The translations under genes and the position numbers were made by a program. Source: Bacteroidales bacterium (GTDB taxonomy: Bacteria; Bacteroidota; Bacteroidia; Bacteroidales; F082). Taken from it: a DNA stretch of 43,369 nucleotides. The notes beneath the pieces are model-generated. The model saw only the letters and a list, made by a program, of their open reading frames with translations, had not been told where the DNA came from and ran no database searches. Positions 16,637 through 23,745 of the stretch are shown piece after piece; the first letter of the stretch is position 1; the number at the start of each line of letters is the position of its first letter. Location of the stretch: positions 1 to 43,369 of the forward strand of contig JAUXMV010000084.1 in assembly GCA_030683155.1 (NCBI GenBank), written 5' to 3'.

Positions 16637-17590
16637 TTACACTACCTGAAGTGCATTAGTTTTTAATTTATTAATGTAATCCATCGCATTTAATGCAGCA
16701 ATTGTGCCATCGGCAGTTGCCAATGTGATTTGTCTGTAGCGTTTTGCATTGGCATCACCTGCTGCAAAAACACCCGAAACGTTTGTTTGCATCTGACTAT
16801 CGACAACGATTTCATTGCGTTCATTTAATTTTATACATCGACCTTTTAAAAAGTCGGTATTGGCTTCATAACCAATGAATACGAATACACCATCAAGGTT
16901 TAGTTCATATTGTTCATGCGTTACAAGATTTTCAACATTTACTGATTCAAGTCCATCTTTTCCATTGAAAGCGGTTATTCTTGAATTGAGACGTATCTCA
17001 ATTTTTGGATTTTTTAATGCTTCATCTTGTTCATGCTGAAATCCCTGAAAGCTATCAAGCATGTGGATTAAAGTAACTTTAGTGGCATATTTTGTTAAGG
17101 AAACTGCTTCCTCCAATGCGGTATTTCCACCACCAACAACAGCGATTTCTTTACCAGTAAAAAAATCTCCGTCGCATGTGGCACAGTAGGATATTCCACG
17201 ACCTTTGAATATATCTTCTCCGGCTACACCTAAATTGCGGGATCTTCCTCCGGTTGCCAATATAATCGTATCTGCCGTAAATTTTTTCCCATTCGACAAG
17301 CGAAGTGATTTTATTGAGGACTCGAAATCTATTTCAACAATTGAAATTCCTGACATTATGTCACAGCCAAAGTTTTTTGCTTGTTTTTTCATCCTGCTGC
17401 TCAACTCATAGCCCGAAATACTCTCGAATCCCGGGTAGTTGGCTATTTCGTGTGACAGAATCATTTGTCCGCCCGCTACACCTGAATCCAGAATAAGTGT
17501 TGTAGCTCTGGCTCTTGATAAATATATTCCTGCAGTCAGTCCTGCCGGACCAGCACCTATAATGATGCTGTTGTAGTGTTTACTTTCCAT
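16637..17590 (-). CDS. trxB: Thioredoxin reductase TrxB
   Basis: The protein has 317 residues, the usual low-molecular-weight TrxB length. It is an FAD flavoprotein that passes electrons from NADPH to thioredoxin in the cytosol. The FAD-binding GAGPAGLTAGIYLSRA lies at about residues 12-27. The redox pair is CATCD with C136 and C139. The NAD(P)-binding loop is VVGGGNTALEEA, and GVFAAGDANA closes the FAD domain. Just upstream is an atypical CX6C thioredoxin-like gene on the same strand, separated by a short hairpin that may limit read-through. Confidence 0.96.
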   Translation of the reverse strand: MESKHYNSIIIGAGPAGLTAGIYLSRARATTLILDSGVAGGQMILSHEIANYPGFESISGYELSSRMKKQAKNFGCDIMSGISIVEIDFESSIKSLRLSNGKKFTADTIILATGGRSRNLGVAGEDIFKGRGISYCATCDGDFFTGKEIAVVGGGNTALEEAVSLTKYATKVTLIHMLDSFQGFQHEQDEALKNPKIEIRLNSRITAFNGKDGLESVNVENLVTHEQYELNLDGVFVFIGYEANTDFLKGRCIKLNERNEIVVDSQMQTNVSGVFAAGDANAKRYRQITLATADGTIAALNAMDYINKLKTNALQVV

Positions 17591-17601
17591 AGCATTTGAA
17601 T

Positions 17602-17639
17602 TTAAAAATAAGGCCCGGATTTTTCGTAAACCCAGGCCT
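17602..17639 (-). terminator. Hairpin between the CX6C thioredoxin-like gene and trxB
   Basis: On the minus strand AGGCCTGG (17639-17632) pairs with CCGGGCCT (17618-17611) with one G-T pair and a 13-base loop. A T-rich run TTATTTTTAAA follows. It lies in the 65-base gap between the two genes, so it may attenuate trxB relative to the first gene. Confidence 0.65.
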
Positions 17640-17655
17640 CAGATTAATCATTAAA

Positions 17656-18009
17656 TTAATTCGATTGACCAAACTCGCGATCAAGAATTGTTGTTATCTG
17701 ATCTCTCGATTGAATACTACTTGTAGCAGCAGCAACTTTTCCGTCTTTAAAATATACAGTGAATGGCAAGCCCATAAAACTGCGACATTCGGGCAGGTTG
17801 CGGATGGCTGCAGCTTCCGGAGAATCAAATGCCATGTCTCTGAATGCGATGTGGGTATATTCTTCCTGAAGTTCCTCCATAACGCCATAAACAGGGATAC
17901 ACATTGGGCCCATGCGACCACAGCATACCATTACGTTTGGATGATTTTTTATTGTTTCGTTCAACTCTGCAGCTGATGCAATGTGTTCAAGATTTGTAGG
18001 TAGTACCAT
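17656..18009 (-). CDS. Atypical thioredoxin-family protein with a CX6C site
   Basis: The protein has 117 residues, thioredoxin length, with no signal peptide. Where normal thioredoxin has WCGPCKMIAP, this has VMVCCGRMGPMCIPVYGVMEE: Cys29, Cys30 and Cys37, so the two outer cysteines are separated by six residues in place of the CXXC pair. The cis-Pro segment is kept as GLPFTVYFKDGKVAAAT, and the C-terminal helix is normal. It is immediately upstream of trxB on the same strand, so TrxB is a likely partner. A 24-bp element shared with another thioredoxin locus lies 67 bases upstream. The reaction is unknown; a dedicated thiol or persulfide carrier is possible. Confidence 0.7.
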   Translation of the reverse strand: MVLPTNLEHIASAAELNETIKNHPNVMVCCGRMGPMCIPVYGVMEELQEEYTHIAFRDMAFDSPEAAAIRNLPECRSFMGLPFTVYFKDGKVAAATSSIQSRDQITTILDREFGQSN

Positions 18010-18076
18010 TTCTTTTAATTTATTAAATGTTATTGTGATAAATTTTCATACTAAAATAGCATAAATTGTGCCAGAT

Positions 18077-18100
18077 AGTGATACTTAAGCGATTTAAAAA
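18077..18100 (-). promoter_or_regulatory. 24-bp element shared with the thioredoxin-lipoprotein locus, copy 1
   Basis: On the minus strand the element reads TTTTTAAATCGCTTAA-G-TATCACT. It matches 23 of 24 positions with 22776-22799. It contains a direct repeat ATCGCT-TAAGT-ATCACT, with an 11-base period. It lies 67 bases before the start of the CX6C thioredoxin-like gene. It is probably a regulator site. Confidence 0.6.
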
Positions 18101-18153
18101 GATTGCTAAATAATCTTTCTTTATCTAGATGTGTTTAAATAATTATAATTCAA

Positions 18154-18933
18154 TTATATACGTTTGATAATCCGCAGATGATGGGTGTATTTACCAAGTT
18201 TTTCATTAAAAATCCCATGATGATCGATACTGTCAACTCTGACACATCCTGAAGCATGAATGACAGTTTTACTGTCGGACAAAATCCCAACATGTACAAT
18301 TTGTCCTTCTTCATTATCAAAAAATGCCAGATCACCGGTTTCAGCTTCCTGAATGAAATTCACGATAATTCCTTGATTTGCCTGTAAACTTGCATCGCGC
18401 TTCAGTCGAAAACCTGCAGCTTTAAAAATAATTTGTGTAAAGCCGCTGCAATCCATTCCGAAAACAGTGCGTCCGCCCCAAAGGTATGGAACGTCTATCA
18501 TTTTTTTTGCATAATTAATAAGTTGGTCTTTGTTGAAGTTTTTGACTTCATAAAATTCTCCTTCAACAATTGAGTCTTTGCAGTTTCCAGTCAATGGATC
18601 AATTTGCAGACTGCTGCCAAAACTGATCAGCAAATTCTTTTTGTCATGTGTTATGATTTTTCCGGTTAATGAAGTAAGTAATGTTTCCTTCTCTGACTGG
18701 TAAATGTTTTCAAATTGCTCAGGAACTTCTTCCAATTGGTTTATACTTATCCAGCCCTCATACGCATCAAAATGTGTGTGAATTAAAGCCCATTTAGGCT
18801 GAAAATCAAGAACATCATAGGTTTCACCAAATAGTAATTGTGAAACCATTTCGCTTTTTTCTGATGGCTGCGCACGCATCGCTATAACAGGCAAATTGCA
18901 AATTCCTGCTTTCAAATTGTTATGTTTTATCAT
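18154..18933 (-). CDS. NlpC/P60 cell-wall hydrolase with N-terminal SH3 domains
   Basis: The protein has 259 residues. The N-terminal half (about 10-125) reads as two bacterial SH3-like modules (VSQLLFGETYDVLD... WALIHTHFDAYEGWI). The C-terminal NlpC/P60 domain has the catalytic Cys162 in FGMDCSGF and His214 in QIVHVGIL, followed by VIHASGCVRVDS with another His. Such enzymes cleave the gamma-D-Glu-diaminopimelate bond in peptidoglycan peptides. No signal peptide is visible from the ATG at 18933, so it may act on imported muropeptides in the cytosol or use an unrecognised export route. On the minus strand a -7 box TACTTTTG lies at 18978-18971. Confidence 0.9.
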   Translation of the reverse strand: MIKHNNLKAGICNLPVIAMRAQPSEKSEMVSQLLFGETYDVLDFQPKWALIHTHFDAYEGWISINQLEEVPEQFENIYQSEKETLLTSLTGKIITHDKKNLLISFGSSLQIDPLTGNCKDSIVEGEFYEVKNFNKDQLINYAKKMIDVPYLWGGRTVFGMDCSGFTQIIFKAAGFRLKRDASLQANQGIIVNFIQEAETGDLAFFDNEEGQIVHVGILSDSKTVIHASGCVRVDSIDHHGIFNEKLGKYTHHLRIIKRI

Positions 18934-19089
18934 TTATTGATATAAAACTGTGATTAAGAAAATCTGTTTTCAAAAGTACATCCTTTTTATAAAGATTTTT
19001 CTGCTGTAAAGTATTTTAGCAGCAACTAAAATTCAAAAATTAATTTTCAATCCTTTTAAATACTAAATTTGTGTCTATTTCATAATCAG

Positions 19090-21144
19090 ATGAACAAAAA
19101 ATTTATTAGCAAGGTCTTACATAATTACTATGGAATTTTTAAAATACTGAGCTTCATCGCTGCTGCAGTGTTGGTAATGTGGTTTATGCCCAGAATCGGA
19201 AAATTCCGGTTTGAGTTTCAGCAAGGTAAACCATGGCAGCATGCCAGTCTTTACGCACCATTTGATTTTTCTATCTTAAAATCATCGGCGCAAATAAAGG
19301 ATGAGAAGGAGAAAATTACCAGACAGATTTATCCTTATTTCGTTTATAACCTTGATGAAACAAAAAAAAACAGAGAAAATCTTGAGTTAATTATTGAAAC
19401 GGAGTTTTCTCAAAACAACAAAAAAAAGCTGCAATATTTTAAGACAGGACTTTTGCTTTTTGACAAGATTCACTCCCGCGGTATTGTTCAACACCACAAA
19501 ATCCTGGATAATCTTGGTCCTGAAAATCTTATCAGTACTGTAAAAGACCGGGTTGTGACTGTATATCAACTAAATGATCTTTTTACAATTACTTCAGCCT
19601 ATGAATATTCCCGACGTGTCATTGACACCGCAAAACTTGATAACCCAAACGAGCTTCTTTCAATAATGAGCGATGTATTTGTTCAGAATCTTGTTTATGA
19701 TGAACGAATAACGAAACAGGAGCTTGAGCAAGCGCTGCAGCGCATTTCAACAACATTTGGGCTTGTACAAAAAGGAGAACTTATAATTGCAGAAGGAGAA
19801 CCGGTTGAAGAAGACAAGTACTTAATATTAAATTCATTAAGGCTCGAAACCGAAAAGCGGACAGGCAGTGCAAATCGTATAAAAGCCCTCATGACAGGCC
19901 AATTGATTTTGGTGCTTTCAATCTTTACTATTTTATTTCTTTTCATTCGTTTTCTTAGAAACGATGTCTTTCGAGAATTGAAAAAGATAAATATGATCTT
20001 GTTTTTGATGTTGTTAAACATAATTCCTTCATATCTTATTCTACACCAGTCACCTACATTTGTTTACCTATTACCTTTTGGAATCTTACCTATACTTTTG
20101 ATCACATTTTTTGACTCACGGACAACAGTTTTGGTTCATTTATTAACCATCTTTTTGGTCTCCATAGTTGTTCCCAATGCTTTTCAGTTTGTTTTTTTGC
20201 AGCTTGTTGTAGGCTATGTAGTTGTTTTTGGACTCGAAAAGCATAACAAAAGGCTTTATTTTTTCAGAGTTTCGGTTTTGATTTTTCTGACATATTTAAT
20301 CATTTATGCAGGCTTCAGTTTAATGCAGGTTTCAAGTCTCATGTTGATTGATGCGTCCATGATATGGATGTTTGCTGTGAGCGCATTGTTAACATTACTT
20401 GCCCTTCCAATGATTTTTCTGCTTGAGCGTATTTTTGGACAGATTACTGATCTGACCTTGCTTGAGCTTAGCAATACAAATAGTCCTTTATTGCGTGAAA
20501 TGGCTTCCCGCGCACCCGGAACATTTCAACACTCCATTCAGGTTGCAAATTTGAGCGAAGAGGCGCTGTATGAAATTGGTGGCGATGTTTTGCTTGCCCG
20601 AACCGGTGCATTATACCATGATATTGGTAAAATGAACAATGCATATTATTTTATTGAAAATCAGTTGGGAGGATATAATCCACATGATGATATTACACCC
20701 GGCGAAAGCGCTGCCATCATTATCGATCACGTTTTGAATGGGATTGAGATGGCACGAAAAGCGAACTTGCCGGAACAGATTATTGATTTCATCAGAACCC
20801 ATCATGGTACGAGCCGCGTAAATTACTTTTATGTCATGCAGCAGCGCCAGAATCCTGATCTGACAATAGATGAGCGAGATTTTCGCTATAAAGGTCCGAT
20901 TCCTTTTTCAAAAGAAACGGCTGTTGTGATGATGGCCGATTCAGTGGAAGCGGCTTCCAGAAGTTTGAAAAATCCTTCGGAGCAAAAGATTAACGATTTG
21001 ATTGAAAACATTATAAGCAAGCAAATCGAATCCAATCAATTCCTTAATGCAAATATTACCTTTAAAGAAATCCATCAGGTTAAGAAAATTCTGAAAAAGA
21101 AGCTTCTCAATATTTATCATGTCAGAATTGCCTATCCTGAATAA
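19090..21144 (+). CDS. pgpH: 7TM-HD family cyclic-di-AMP phosphodiesterase, PgpH-like
   Basis: Starting at the ATG at 19090, the protein has 684 residues; the frame opens earlier at a TTG, but the ATG gives MNKKFISKVL and a good first membrane helix. An extracytoplasmic 7TMR-HDED region (about 40-260) follows the first helix. A block of about seven hydrophobic helices runs from about 275 to 455, and a cytosolic HD domain follows with H510-D511 in YHDIGKMNN and a later HHGTSRVNYFY. PgpH-type enzymes degrade c-di-AMP, and this protein has the same architecture. Its last 13 bases overlap the converging WbqC-like gene. A -7 box TAAATTTG lies at 19064-19071. Confidence 0.92.
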   Translation: MNKKFISKVLHNYYGIFKILSFIAAAVLVMWFMPRIGKFRFEFQQGKPWQHASLYAPFDFSILKSSAQIKDEKEKITRQIYPYFVYNLDETKKNRENLELIIETEFSQNNKKKLQYFKTGLLLFDKIHSRGIVQHHKILDNLGPENLISTVKDRVVTVYQLNDLFTITSAYEYSRRVIDTAKLDNPNELLSIMSDVFVQNLVYDERITKQELEQALQRISTTFGLVQKGELIIAEGEPVEEDKYLILNSLRLETEKRTGSANRIKALMTGQLILVLSIFTILFLFIRFLRNDVFRELKKINMILFLMLLNIIPSYLILHQSPTFVYLLPFGILPILLITFFDSRTTVLVHLLTIFLVSIVVPNAFQFVFLQLVVGYVVVFGLEKHNKRLYFFRVSVLIFLTYLIIYAGFSLMQVSSLMLIDASMIWMFAVSALLTLLALPMIFLLERIFGQITDLTLLELSNTNSPLLREMASRAPGTFQHSIQVANLSEEALYEIGGDVLLARTGALYHDIGKMNNAYYFIENQLGGYNPHDDITPGESAAIIIDHVLNGIEMARKANLPEQIIDFIRTHHGTSRVNYFYVMQQRQNPDLTIDERDFRYKGPIPFSKETAVVMMADSVEAASRSLKNPSEQKINDLIENIISKQIESNQFLNANITFKEIHQVKKILKKKLLNIYHVRIAYPE

Positions 21145-21761
21145 ACAGAACTTGCTTTTTTCAGATAGTGAAAAGCGTCAGGACCTTTATTGAAAAGCAA
21201 ATCAAGGATGCTAAGGTCTGGCTGAAATTGGTGGCGGTCAGAGAAGACCTGATAATAAGGTTCAAACCGAAAAATACTTTTTTTGTCTGAGAAAATGTGT
21301 CTTAGGTCTGTATAATCTGCTGAATCTTTTTGCCATTTTGTCGTATAGGCAAGACCTTTTTCTGATTTTAACATGTTTAAAACCAGTTGTATTGTCGCAT
21401 GGTTAAGCTCAGTCAGAAGTTCAAATCGCTTTGCATAAAACGCTTCAATAAGATGACGATAGTGATAAAAAAATGGCGATTTGTTGTAGGCAGATTCAAT
21501 TGAACGAAGATGATTCTGCTGCCAGTTCTCGTTATATAACACTTTAATATCTAATGTTTTACTTTGGTTTCCATTGCATTTCTCAATAGGAACACTCAGT
21601 CTTAATATGCCGTTTGCACTGAGAATGCGACATCTGTTCCTGATAGTTTGCTTTGGATAAGTTTCATGTATTTCAAGAAGAGCATCATCTGAATTAAGCA
21701 ACATTGCCATCCATGACAAAGGCGGGAAAAAGGCAGTTGGCAGTAAATATTTTCTTGACAT
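21132..21761 (-). CDS. WbqC-family protein
   Basis: The protein has 209 residues from the ATG at 21761 (MSRKYLLPTAFFPP); the frame opens earlier at a TTG but that start adds only unlikely residues. The sequence has the WbqC layout: LLPTAFFPP at the N-terminus, a conserved YPKQTIRNRCRILSANG segment, RLSVPIEKC, and NWQQNHLRSIESAYNKSPFF. WbqC proteins occur in O-antigen or lipopolysaccharide loci and are of uncertain enzymatic function. It is transcribed toward pgpH and overlaps its end by 13 bases. A terminator stands between it and the thioredoxin genes upstream. Confidence 0.85.
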   Translation of the reverse strand: MSRKYLLPTAFFPPLSWMAMLLNSDDALLEIHETYPKQTIRNRCRILSANGILRLSVPIEKCNGNQSKTLDIKVLYNENWQQNHLRSIESAYNKSPFFYHYRHLIEAFYAKRFELLTELNHATIQLVLNMLKSEKGLAYTTKWQKDSADYTDLRHIFSDKKSIFRFEPYYQVFSDRHQFQPDLSILDLLFNKGPDAFHYLKKASSVYSG

Positions 21762-21807
21762 ATTGTCTTGTTGAACGCGCAAAATTAGGCTTTGGAAAAA
21801 CTAAATC

Positions 21808-21847
21808 AAAAAAAAAAGTCGTGCGCAATTTGCACACGACTTTTTTT
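21808..21847. terminator. Bidirectional terminator after the thioredoxin pair
   Basis: GTCGTGCGCAA at 21818-21828 pairs with TTGCACACGAC at 21830-21840 (one mismatch). A run of ten A (21808-21817) lies on one side and seven T (21841-21847) on the other, so it can end transcripts from both strands. It lies 17 bases after the stop codon of trxA. Confidence 0.9.
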
Positions 21848-21863
21848 CTTACTGATTGTGAAA

Positions 21864-22217
21864 TTAGTTTTTCAACAACACATCGTTGATAGCCTGACGC
21901 ATGGATTCAACTGGCAGCGCACCCATTGCCATCTGAGGCTGTCCATCTTTAGGACAGAAAAGCAATGAAGGAATGCTTCTGATTCCAAATGCTGCAGCTA
22001 ACTCAGTTTGGTCCTCAGTATCAATTTTATAGATGTTAATTTTGCCGGCAAATTCTTTCGAAAGTTCCTCAAGGATTGGGGCAACCATTTTACATGGCTG
22101 ACACCAATCAGCGTAAAAATCAATTAAACAGGGCAGTTCGCCTTCAAATTTCCAGTCTTTATTTTGTTCGTAGTTGAATACTTTTGTAAGAAAAGTCTCT
22201 TTTGTTAAATGCTCCAT
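21864..22217 (-). CDS. trxA: Cytosolic thioredoxin
   Basis: The protein has 117 residues, thioredoxin fold, with no signal peptide. The active site is DWCQPCKMVAPILEE with Cys39 and Cys42. The cis-Pro loop is RSIPSLLFCPKDGQP. The N-terminal half HLTKETFLTKVFNYEQN is like that of the next upstream gene (YLTYDTFLTKVWNFESN), and the two share the FYADWC core, so they are tandem paralogs. The gap is 33 bases and they are probably one transcript that ends at the terminator beyond this gene. It is the likely cytosolic partner of TrxB. Confidence 0.93.
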   Translation of the reverse strand: MEHLTKETFLTKVFNYEQNKDWKFEGELPCLIDFYADWCQPCKMVAPILEELSKEFAGKINIYKIDTEDQTELAAAFGIRSIPSLLFCPKDGQPQMAMGALPVESMRQAINDVLLKN

Positions 22218-22250
22218 TTTGAAACGTTTTATGAATTAATTTGTGGTTTA

Positions 22251-22727
22251 TTATTTCTTAAGAAGTTGTTCTTCAATGATCTTGACATACATTTCTTCTG
22301 TCATTGCACCGGCCTGCATCATTGGCTGACCTGAAACCGGTGTAAACAAAATCGAAGGGATACTCCTGACCTGAAAAACTCCGGCAAGCTTTTGTTCTTT
22401 ATCAACGTCTATCTTATAAACCTTGAGTTTGCCATCGTAATCTTTTGCGATTTTTTCCATAATTGGAGCTATTTTGCGACAAGGTGCACACCAGTCAGCA
22501 TAAAAGTCAATTATTGCTGGCACTTCGCCTTCATAAACCCAATTTTGAGGGTTGGATTCAAAGTTCCAAACCTTGGTAAGAAATGTGTCATATGTGAGAT
22601 ACTCAACTTTTCCGGACTCTTTTTTTACTTCCGAAGCGCTGCTATCACTGGTTTTACCTGTAGTGCTGCTGCAACCGGTGGTCAAAATAATCATGATGGT
22701 CGATAAAATCAGAATGTTTTTGATCAT
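22251..22727 (-). CDS. Membrane-anchored thioredoxin lipoprotein
   Basis: The protein has 158 residues. The lipobox LTTGC gives Cys19 and a Ser/Thr/Lys-rich linker (20-41), so it is a lipoprotein with an exported domain. The thioredoxin domain has DWCAPCRKIAPIMEK with Cys81 and Cys84, and RSIPSILFTPVSGQP as the cis-Pro loop. It is paralogous to the downstream cytosolic thioredoxin. It may reduce or oxidise extracytoplasmic thiols; no DsbD/CcdA-type reductant partner is in the window. On the minus strand a -7 box TATTTTTG lies at 22770-22763, and the shared 24-bp element overlaps the expected -33 position. Confidence 0.9.
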   Translation of the reverse strand: MIKNILILSTIMIILTTGCSSTTGKTSDSSASEVKKESGKVEYLTYDTFLTKVWNFESNPQNWVYEGEVPAIIDFYADWCAPCRKIAPIMEKIAKDYDGKLKVYKIDVDKEQKLAGVFQVRSIPSILFTPVSGQPMMQAGAMTEEMYVKIIEEQLLKK

Positions 22728-22775
22728 TTGTTTTAGATTTTTATGTGTGTAAAAAAGTTTTGCAAAAATAATAAT

Positions 22776-22799
22776 TTTTTAAATCGCTTAACTATCACT
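22776..22799 (+). promoter_or_regulatory. 24-bp element shared with the CX6C thioredoxin-like locus, copy 2
   Basis: The plus strand reads TTTTTAAATCGCTTAA-C-TATCACT, with a direct repeat ATCGCT-TAACT-ATCACT at 11-base period. It lies between divergent genes, 49 bases before the thioredoxin lipoprotein and 91 bases before the zinc-ribbon gene. Relative to the zinc-ribbon gene it has the same orientation as copy 1 has to its own gene. Confidence 0.6.
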
Positions 22800-22889
22800 T
22801 TTTAATTAATTTTGCAATCAAATTCTGTACCAAAGACTATAATTGATTTTTTATAGTTTTTTGACTGGCCAAAAATAGTAGAAAGCATA

Positions 22890-23276
22890 ATGGAACAAGA
22901 AGAATTATTGTTAAAATTTCTTTCTGATCAGAAATGGAAGGATGGCTTTAAGTGTCGCAAATGTGGAAACGAAAATTTCTGTAAGGGAAAAAAGCCATTT
23001 TCACGTCGTTGCACCCGATGTAAGTCAGAGGAGTCTGCAACGGCACACACCATTTTTCACAGATGCAAAATATCTTTAACAGAAGCTTTTGCTCTGGCTC
23101 AAATAATTTGTAATGAGCCAGATATTTCAACCTATGAAATTAGCAGACAACTTGATAAAAGACAAATGACATGTTGGAAATTTAAATCCAGAATGCTTGA
23201 ATGTCTTGAAAACCCTGAGAAAGCGGCCATACTTCAAAAGATGATTGCATTGCCTCTTGAACTTAAGGAAAACTAG
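22890..23276 (+). CDS. Orphan IS1595-type transposase zinc-ribbon protein
   Basis: The protein has 128 residues. The N-terminal zinc ribbon has ligands C22-X2-C25 and C41-X2-C44, followed by SATAHTIFHRCKISLTEAF, the signature of the domain found at the start of IS1595/ISXO2-type transposases. A helix-turn-helix-like region follows (STYEISRQLDKRQMTCWKFK). The DDE nuclease that would come next is absent: the frame stops after LELKEN, and no remnant is seen downstream. No terminal inverted repeats were seen. It could be a domesticated DNA-binding protein or a truncated transposase. A -7-like TAATTTTG lies at 22807-22814. Confidence 0.75.
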   Translation: MEQEELLLKFLSDQKWKDGFKCRKCGNENFCKGKKPFSRRCTRCKSEESATAHTIFHRCKISLTEAFALAQIICNEPDISTYEISRQLDKRQMTCWKFKSRMLECLENPEKAAILQKMIALPLELKEN

Positions 23277-23334
23277 CAAACTCTAAAGGGGTTACGATTA
23301 TCTTTTCAGTGATTGTCAGGTTTAGGTGAGACCG

Positions 23335-23745
23335 CTACTTACACCATTTTGTGTAATCGACAATGTTTTGCTTGCCCAATTCTTCAGCCTTCAAATAGTA
23401 AGAGCACGCTTTTTGGCTGTCTTGCAAATAATCATAAATCAATCCAAGAGCAAAATAGGGCTCATCATACAGTGGGTTTTTTTCTATTGAGGCCTGATAA
23501 TCCTGAATAGCCCCATCGATATCATTTAATTGCCGCTTACATGATCCTCTGTAATACAATGCCTCATGTGAATCACGGTCATATTTTAGCACTAGATTAA
23601 GCTCTTTTATAGCCTCCTCGGTTTGTGCTTTGAAAATTAACTCAATTGCATTTTCTAAATGAAAACGGGCTTTTGTTGGATTTGGCCCACACGAAACAAG
23701 CCACAAGGACAATAGAATAAGAATAAATACGAAATGTCTTTTCAT
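23335..23745 (-). CDS. Small TPR lipoprotein
   Basis: The protein has 136 residues. The lipobox LVSC gives Cys19. Three TPR-type motifs follow: FHLENAIELIFKAQTEEAI, HEALYYRGSCKRQLNDIDG and EPYFALGLIYDYLQDSQKA. Such small TPR lipoproteins usually act as binding partners at the inner face of the outer membrane; none is known here. It lies 83 bases downstream of the phosphohexomutase gene on the same strand, and may be the last gene of that run. Confidence 0.8.
   Translation of the reverse strand: MKRHFVFILILLSLWLVSCGPNPTKARFHLENAIELIFKAQTEEAIKELNLVLKYDRDSHEALYYRGSCKRQLNDIDGAIQDYQASIEKNPLYDEPYFALGLIYDYLQDSQKACSYYLKAEELGKQNIVDYTKWCK

What the first reader, a model, noticed from the sequence alone, without database searches (positions are those of the whole stretch)
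18077..22799. Same 24-bp element in front of two separate thioredoxin loci
The element at 18077-18100 (minus) and at 22776-22799 (plus) agrees at 23 of 24 positions, although the two sites are 4.7 kb apart and the surrounding sequence differs. Each has the direct repeat ATCGCT-N5-ATCACT, at one helical turn, which suits a regulator that binds as a tandem dimer. Both sites are within 100 bases of genes for thioredoxin-family proteins. This could define a small redox regulon.
Basis: partly seen in the sequence, partly recalled or inferred. Interest (0 to 1): 0.75.

Follow-up and report, generated by a model that had tools for sequence, protein, structure and literature searches.

The report
Transposase-derived regulator of thioredoxin genes
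The repeated 24-letter sequence is a conserved control switch in front of thioredoxin-system genes in many Bacteroidota, and its likely reader is a small protein encoded right beside it that is the DNA-binding piece of an old jumping-gene enzyme, put to use as a regulator of the cell's thiol balance.

Summary
In detail: 23 of 24 positions match, 67 and 48 bp from thioredoxin-fold genes, the only zero-mismatch sites in the 4.74-Mb genome. The "redox regulon" reading is supported and extended. The element precedes orthologs of both thioredoxin genes in 51 of 60 loci, trxB in 11 genomes including this one, dsbD in two, and in other families more thioredoxin and thiol/sulfur genes. Of 80 ZnR loci from named genomes, 80 carry the element upstream and 79 a divergent thioredoxin. 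In 198 genomes of the order: both 45, ZnR only 9, element only 0, neither 144; a column-permuted control hit 1 of 198. Three of 61 nearer relatives have an element but no ZnR found. Best model: ZnR is a domesticated-transposase, thiol-sensing, autoregulated transcription factor, probably a repressor, of the thioredoxin system. DNA binding, sensing and sign of control are inferred.

The parts
18077..18100 (-). Element 1 (ATCGCT-N5-ATCACT direct repeat with TTTAAA flank), 67 bp upstream of the thioredoxin-fold gene 17656-18009
   Evidence: element found in 23 of 30 ortholog loci
22776..22799 (+). Element 2, in the divergent promoter region between the thioredoxin operon (-) and the ZnR gene (+)
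   Evidence: found in 28 of 30 ortholog loci and 80 of 80 ZnR loci
22890..23276 (+). ZnR: 128-aa IS1595-type zinc ribbon + HTH protein without DDE catalytic domain; candidate regulator that binds the element
   Evidence: PF12760, model pLDDT 90, alignment A2, co-occurrence
22251..22727 (-). Thioredoxin with N-terminal lipoprotein-like signal (by eye) and CAPC active site; first gene of the divergent pair, predicted target
   Evidence: PF00085; TIGR01068 just below cut-off, 95.5 vs 96.8 bits
21864..22217 (-). Thioredoxin (CQPC active site), next gene on the same strand, probably same operon
   Evidence: PF00085, TIGR01068 over cut-off
17656..18009 (-). Thioredoxin-fold protein with CCGRMGPMC motif, predicted target of element 1
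   Evidence: A3 alignment, PDB profile hit, fold
16637..17590 (-). Thioredoxin-disulfide reductase, next gene after 17656-18009 on the same strand (a terminator-like hairpin lies between them at 17609-17641)
   Evidence: TIGR01292 over cut-off
22807..22814 (+). TAATTTTG, Bacteroidota -7 box (TAnnTTTG, consensus recalled) on the ZnR side, 7 bp after the element core
22763..22770 (-). TATTTTTG, -7 box on the thioredoxin side, 7 bp from the element core
18059..18072 (-). Sigma54-like GG-N10-GC box starting 4 bp after element 1, reading toward 17656-18009
   Evidence: rpoN present in the genome
22818..22831 (-). Sigma54-like GG-N10-GA box upstream of element 2 on the thioredoxin strand
   Evidence: a similar box recurs in relatives (by eye, not counted)
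21807..21851 (-). Terminator-like hairpin after the two-thioredoxin operon

Best explanation
The 24-bp element is the operator of a thioredoxin-system regulon. The regulator is ZnR (22890-23276), the zinc-ribbon plus helix-turn-helix half of an IS1595-family transposase that lacks the catalytic domain and now works as a transcription factor. Two ZnR protomers bind head-to-tail on the 11-bp direct repeat (inferred). At the shared site 2 the element overlaps the expected -33 regions of both divergent promoters, so bound ZnR represses its own gene and the thioredoxin operon (inferred from geometry). Oxidation or persulfidation of its extra conserved cysteines, or release of zinc, would loosen binding and raise thioredoxins, thioredoxin reductase and, in some lineages, DsbD, OsmC and other thiol/sulfur proteins (inferred). 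Shown: the conservation, the regulon content, the ZnR-element co-occurrence, the domain structure, the extra cysteines. Not shown: DNA binding, sign of regulation, signal.
For: 198 genomes of the order: ZnR+/element+ 45 (28 families), ZnR+/element- 9, ZnR-/element+ 0, ZnR-/element- 144; permuted control 1 of 198. Of the 9, seven have weaker matches upstream of ZnR (scores 13.9-26) and two none. Outside the order the one further genome with a short close ZnR (G395) has the element right upstream of it. G010 and G025 lack ZnR; their first thioredoxin gene has the sigma54-like box but not the element. Targets are largely thioredoxin/thiol genes. TAnnTTTG boxes flank the element within 30 bp on both sides: 76 of 80 and 80 of 80; random windows 69 of 4000. 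C31, C74 and C95 are present in 29 of 29, 80 of 80 and 12 of 12 ZnRs, C59 in 29, 80 and 9 of 12 (the sets overlap); in 10 IS1595 relatives C31 occurs once, C59 and C74 never, C95 once. IS1595 zinc ribbons are also fused to 7TMR-DISM receptor proteins, i.e. apparently used as regulator domains.
Against: No binding or expression data. Co-occurrence is phylogenetically correlated, so the Fisher p (6e-36) overstates independence; the ZnR cut (E<=1e-40, open frame up to about 210 aa) was set after seeing the list. Five of 28 ZnR-distant sites have no sensible target. In G013 and G056, which have ZnR, the ortholog of 17656-18009 lacks the element. G003, G014 and G015 have an element but no ZnR found; no divergent thioredoxin-ZnR locus was found there either, so loss and an assembly gap cannot be told apart. 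The phylum sample gave 9 further element hits at E 0.009-0.018 in genomes without a close short ZnR, near the chance level for 296 genomes. C59 is missing in three ZnRs (G059, G062, G075), so it cannot be essential everywhere; G059 also lacks the element. The element-to-start distance at trxB differs from that at the other targets, so one repression geometry does not fit all. Zinc or cysteine sensing is only read from conservation.
Confidence: 0.8

Rival explanations
1. The element is the site of a different, unlinked regulator of the thioredoxin system, and ZnR is merely one of its targets.
For: The element also precedes many genes far from ZnR. The sequence data alone do not identify the binder. 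G003, G014 and G015 have the element without a ZnR found.
Against: 0 of 144 ZnR-less genomes of the order have the element at E<=0.02, and where ZnR is absent other target genes can persist without the element, e.g. the first thioredoxin gene in G010 and G025. ZnR is a predicted DNA-binding protein with the element in front of itself in 80 of 80 loci, as expected of an autoregulator.
Confidence: 0.13
2. ZnR binds the element but activates: the element acts as an activator site at the trx, trxB and 17656-18009 promoters (with sigma54-like boxes at the latter), while repressing or tuning its own gene.
For: At the 17656-18009 orthologs the element ends 4 bp before a GG-N10-G[AC] box in 18 of 25 elements (2 at 5, 1 at 3, 4 without; 32 loci examined, 7 without element), a near-fixed spacing; at trxB the element lies well upstream of the start; rpoN is present in 38 of 41 genomes.
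Against: Sigma54 activators normally bind much further upstream and need an AAA+ domain (recalled), and ZnR shows no such domain. At the divergent promoters the element overlaps both expected -33 regions with spacing that varies over several bp, which suits a repressor.
Confidence: 0.35
3. The element is a repeat of a mobile element (MITE or IS end), and ZnR is a decaying transposase.
For: ZnR descends from the IS1595 family.
Against: No inverted repeat of 12 bp or more in window 22700-23500 or 17900-18200; 2 exact copies in the genome; 26 invariant columns in 29 ZnRs that are 46-73% identical to the window protein; same side and orientation in 80 of 80 loci; targets are largely thiol genes.
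Confidence: 0.02
4. The similarity of the two sites is chance plus shared promoter sequence.
For: The bare core with 2 mismatches is at chance level in the window.
Against: Conservation in 51 of 60 loci, permuted-model control, and presence of the promoter-like box without the element in G010 and G025.
Confidence: 0.01

Closest known systems
IS1595-family transposases (PF12760, NF033547)
   Same: N-terminal zinc ribbon (CxxC...CxxC) and the following HTH; the closest full-length relative compared (L236, 307 aa) is 39% identical over the aligned part
   Different: No DDE catalytic domain, fixed locus beside a thioredoxin, extra conserved cysteines, conserved operator in front of its own gene
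Sigma-R/RsrA of Streptomyces (recalled, not tested)
   Same: Zinc- and cysteine-based thiol-redox control of trxA/trxB with autoregulation
   Different: RsrA is an anti-sigma factor; ZnR carries its own predicted DNA-binding HTH and an operator; no sigma partner was looked for
NrdR (zinc-ribbon repressor with tandem boxes; recalled)
   Same: Small zinc-ribbon repressor that binds tandem boxes in promoters
   Different: No ATP-cone domain found in ZnR; targets are thiol-redox genes, not ribonucleotide reductases
BmoR of Bacteroides fragilis (MarR family; PMC6158253, passages seen)
   Same: Bacteroidota regulator of thiol/disulfide balance that represses a neighbouring disulfide-oxidoreductase gene
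   Different: MarR fold and inverted-repeat operator; effect on a thioredoxin gene described as indirect; unrelated protein
CstR / BigR / SqrR persulfide-sensing repressors (recalled)
   Same: Regulons with TauE-type transporters, quinone oxidoreductases and thiol proteins, sensing by cysteine pairs
   Different: CsoR or ArsR folds; no homology
FHY3/FAR1 plant factors from MULE transposases (PMC13306707, start of abstract in search listing only)
   Same: Transposase DNA-binding part turned into a transcription factor
   Different: Eukaryotic, different transposase family, light signalling

Membership tests
IS1595-family transposase | N-terminal zinc-ribbon domain | tested here: met
   PF12760 over cut-off (26.3 vs 25.4 bits); matched at E<=0.01 in 29 of 29 orthologs
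IS1595-family transposase | DDE catalytic domain after the HTH (full length about 300 aa) | tested here: not met
   128 aa; model ends after the HTH helices; NF033547 matches only positions 2-64 of 215 and is below cut-off, 26.6 vs 75 bits
IS1595-family transposase | Terminal inverted repeats and target-site duplications around the gene | tested here: inconclusive
   No inverted repeat of 12 bp or more in window 22700-23500; target-site duplications not looked for; the gene holds the same place beside a thioredoxin in 79 of 80 loci, unlike a mobile element
Thiol-redox transcription factor | Operator conserved upstream of thiol-redox genes | tested here: met
Thiol-redox transcription factor | Conserved cysteines beyond the structural ones | tested here: met
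   C31, C74, C95 in 29 of 29, 80 of 80, 12 of 12; C59 in 29, 80 and 9 of 12; in 10 IS1595 relatives C31 1, C59 0, C74 0, C95 1
Thiol-redox transcription factor | Specific DNA binding that changes on oxidation | not testable with these tools
   needs EMSA with reduced and oxidised protein
NrdR | ATP-cone domain | tested here: not met
   only PF12760 found at E<=0.001; over the 29 orthologs only PF12760 and one stray hit at E<=0.01
Sigma54-dependent promoter (at 18059-18072) | GG-N10-GC at -24/-12 | tested here: met
   CTGGCACAATTTATGCT; in relatives mostly GG-N10-GA, which fits the recalled consensus less well
Sigma54-dependent promoter (at 18059-18072) | Transcription depends on RpoN and an AAA+ activator | not testable with these tools
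   rpoN gene present (PF04552, G000:C74)

The most novel reading that the evidence does not exclude
A transposase DNA-binding fragment was domesticated in Bacteroidota as a cysteine- and zinc-based sensor of disulfide or reactive-sulfur (persulfide) stress, and became a lineage-wide regulator of the thioredoxin system and of a sulfur-detoxifying module (OsmC, DUF302, YgaP-like, TauE, DUF6132-like, methyltransferase-radical SAM-Trx/TrxB fusion); the same kind of domain was also fused to 7TM receptors as their DNA-binding output.
Probability: 0.35. Interest if true: 0.87.

Novelty: new variant of a known kind. Interest (0 to 1): 0.73.

Why it matters
For B. fragilis the thioredoxin system is described as the main thiol/disulfide system (passage of PMC6158253), yet how the thioredoxin genes of Bacteroidota are coordinated is little known (my own judgement). 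Here is a predicted operator, a predicted regulator and a target list, seen in 45 genomes of 28 families of the order and testable with one EMSA and one deletion. ZnR genes match a transposase domain model, so they may be annotated as transposase remnants and overlooked; one scan returned 428 relatives, of which only the best 80 were inspected. It would also be a clear bacterial case of transposase-to-transcription-factor domestication. My searches of the open PMC library showed no paper on it in their listings (subscription papers and preprints not covered).

Tried and rejected
Bare core motif ATCRCT-N5-ATCRCT with 2 mismatches: chance level. The weaker own-genome matches other than C49 (for example L003, L004) were not pursued: their flanks do not match the element. 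Classical sigma70 scan: 20 promoter-like sites against 19.7 expected, uninformative. PDB by sequence and by fold for ZnR: nothing at E<=1 and nothing at E<=0.001. Literature for OsmC/DUF302/YgaP/TauE plus persulfide: one irrelevant hit, so the persulfide reading rests on gene content and recall. A mobile-repeat (MITE) reading was rejected: no inverted repeats at either site and fixed synteny. Four of 20 regions fetched gave no thiol target: L142, L145, L148 lie inside coding sequence, L146 did not reach my score threshold. Sigma54 control was considered as the main story and demoted: the box occurs where the element is absent. On checking I corrected one claim: C31 is not absent from all ten IS1595 relatives, one (L232) has it, and C59 is not invariant in ZnRs beyond the first alignment; odds left unchanged because C74 and C95 still hold.
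Full report
Observation. The two sites are as described: 23 of 24 positions identical, direct repeat of 11 bp, 67 and 48 bp from the start codons of thioredoxin-fold genes. They are the only two zero-mismatch matches to ATCRCTTAANTATCACT in the 4.74-Mb genome. The bare core with two mismatches is not enriched in the window. The first gene (17656-18009) had no Pfam or NCBIfam match, but its family is thioredoxin-like by profile and by predicted fold, with an unusual CCGRMGPMC motif.

Conservation. I took homologs of both genes in 61 related genomes (found in 31 and 61 of them) and examined the 30 best loci of each. A position-weight search, refined on these same loci, finds the element in 23 of 30 loci of the first gene and 28 of 30 of the second. 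Those without it: G010, G025, G046, G052, G056, G013, G043 (first gene) and G012, G034 (second gene).

A third target. A sequence-only model of the element (R1) run over the 61 genomes returned these loci and others. I fetched 20 regions, chosen from hits with E up to about 0.08. Eleven lie before a second thioredoxin reductase gene, trxB, including G000:C49:45206 in the window's own genome; two before a dsbD-like gene (G005, G014); one before a thioredoxin (G041); two are ZnR/thioredoxin loci (G011, G042); four have no sensible target. Pfam was run on one trxB and one dsbD, the others were recognised by sequence. In the window's genome R2 has three hits at E<=0.02: the two window sites and trxB.

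The neighbour. Site 2 lies between the thioredoxin operon and a divergent gene at 22890-23276. Its product matches only the IS1595 transposase zinc ribbon (PF12760; 29 of 29 aligned orthologs) and the start of the IS1595 transposase model, below cut-off. The model (pLDDT 90) shows an N-terminal helix, the ribbon and a helical HTH part, and no catalytic domain. Relatives are present in 37 of 61 genomes at E<=0.001; in 32 of these 37 the gene lies within 600 bp of, and divergent to, the best match of the 22251-22727 thioredoxin. I call it ZnR.

Linkage of ZnR and element. A scan of named genomes with the ZnR alignment found 428 loci and kept the best 80. All 80 have the element 94-482 bp upstream of ZnR on the same strand, 79 have a divergent thioredoxin (the other is at a contig edge), and no further element reaches the threshold in the remaining 426,630 b. 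In 198 genomes of the order drawn by the tool, model R2 (E<=0.02) hits 45, its column-permuted control R3 hits 1, and a short ZnR (E<=1e-40, open frame up to about 210 aa, a cut set after seeing the list) is in 54. The table is 45 / 9 / 0 / 144. At least 7 of the 45 genomes contributed sites to R2. Of the nine ZnR-bearing genomes without a hit, seven have weaker matches upstream of ZnR (scores 13.9-26) and two none. Against this, in the 61-genome sample G003, G014 and G015 have an element at E<0.02 and no ZnR found. A phylum-wide sample of 296 had one close short ZnR besides the window's own, G395, and the best element hit outside the window's genome is right upstream of it. Nine more weak hits there, in genomes without a close short ZnR, are at about the level expected by chance.

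Targets in other families. Of 74 R2 hits in the order sample, 46 are within 500 bp upstream of a ZnR and 28 are not. Flanking genes of the 28: thioredoxin-system 11 (orthologs of 17656-18009 four, thioredoxins five, a thioredoxin followed by a thioredoxin-TrxB gene one, trxB one); other thiol, sulfur or redox genes 12 (OsmC two, one of them shared with DUF302; TauE with methyltransferase one; methyltransferase two; YgaP-like membrane protein three, one shared with a DUF6132-like protein; DUF6132-like one; Pyr_redox_2 oxidoreductase one; molybdopterin oxidoreductase one; 2Fe-2S thioredoxin-like one); none obvious five. The grouping is mine, and part of the names rest on likeness by eye to proteins that were run against Pfam; two of three DUF6132 matches are below the Pfam cut-off. 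A Trx-TrxB fusion in this module was confirmed for L275.

Mechanism. Around the shared site, TAnnTTTG boxes (the Bacteroidota -7 consensus, recalled) flank the element within 30 bp on the ZnR side in 76 of 80 loci (commonest offset 8 bp) and on the thioredoxin side in 80 of 80 (commonest 13 bp), against 69 of 4000 random windows of the same loci, coding included. The element thus covers the expected -33 regions of both promoters, which argues for repression of both. At the first-gene orthologs the element is followed after 4 bp by a sigma54-like GG-N10-G[AC] box in 18 of 25 elements; rpoN is present in 38 of 41 genomes. That box occurs without the element in G010 and G025, so the two are separate signals. 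Whether ZnR represses or activates there is open. Eight cysteines are invariant in the 29 aligned ZnRs. Four fit the ribbon. Of the others C31, C74 and C95 are also in 80 of 80 and 12 of 12 further ZnRs, C59 in 80 of 80 and 9 of 12. Among ten IS1595 relatives C31 occurs in one (L232), C59 and C74 in none, C95 in one, the closest (L236). Conserved extra cysteines in a protein that sits on thioredoxin promoters suggest thiol sensing. This is inference.

Known or new. I found no paper linking IS1595 proteins to thioredoxin control (listings only). The nearest described Bacteroidota case is BmoR, a MarR repressor of thiol balance (PMC6158253, passages), unrelated in fold and operator type. ZnR would work like a one-component redox repressor and descends from, but is no longer, an IS1595 transposase. 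I rate it a new variant of a known kind: a new family of predicted thiol-redox regulator.

Limits. The records are mostly metagenome bins. E-values of short sequence models are rough. Counts are not phylogenetically independent, and motif models were trained on part of what they found. No binding or expression data exist here.

Noticed in passing
L303:2068-3489 (G486) and L304:117-1841 (G097): IS1595-type zinc ribbon plus HTH-like part at the C-terminal end of 7TMR-DISM membrane receptors (PF07695 with PF12760; the ribbon is over cut-off in L303, below it in L304): looks like a membrane one-component regulator with a transposase-derived output domain.
   Followed up: partly
L144, L273, L275, L278, L302: Recurrent module near the element: Cys-rich-start methyltransferase, radical SAM protein (Pfam-tested in L144), thioredoxin-TrxB fusion (tested in L275), in some also class-V aminotransferase, DUF302-like, DUF6132-like and Crp-type regulator; function unclear.
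   Followed up: partly
L277 (G130), L144 (G042), L292 (G062), L293 (G075): Two whole elements in tandem about 20-22 bp apart, i.e. longer arrays of the 11-bp half-site.
   Followed up: no
L129, L132, L133, L139, L141 and other trxB loci: A second short motif (about CTGTCAG / CTGGCAG) 15-30 bp after the element and a TGGCAYNNTTTT-like box further down recur in trxB upstream regions (by eye).
   Followed up: no
window 17656-18009: Thioredoxin-fold family with CCGRMGPMC in place of the usual WCGPC, no Pfam or NCBIfam match for the window protein, well conserved; active-site chemistry unknown.
   Followed up: partly
L238 (G000:C70) and L237 (G004:C15): Other short IS1595 relatives (120 and 158 aa) without the extra cysteines; remnants or further domesticated copies.
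   Followed up: no
L291 (G059): A ZnR-like gene without element, without C59, and with a thioredoxin match on the same strand rather than divergent: perhaps a different subtype.
   Followed up: no
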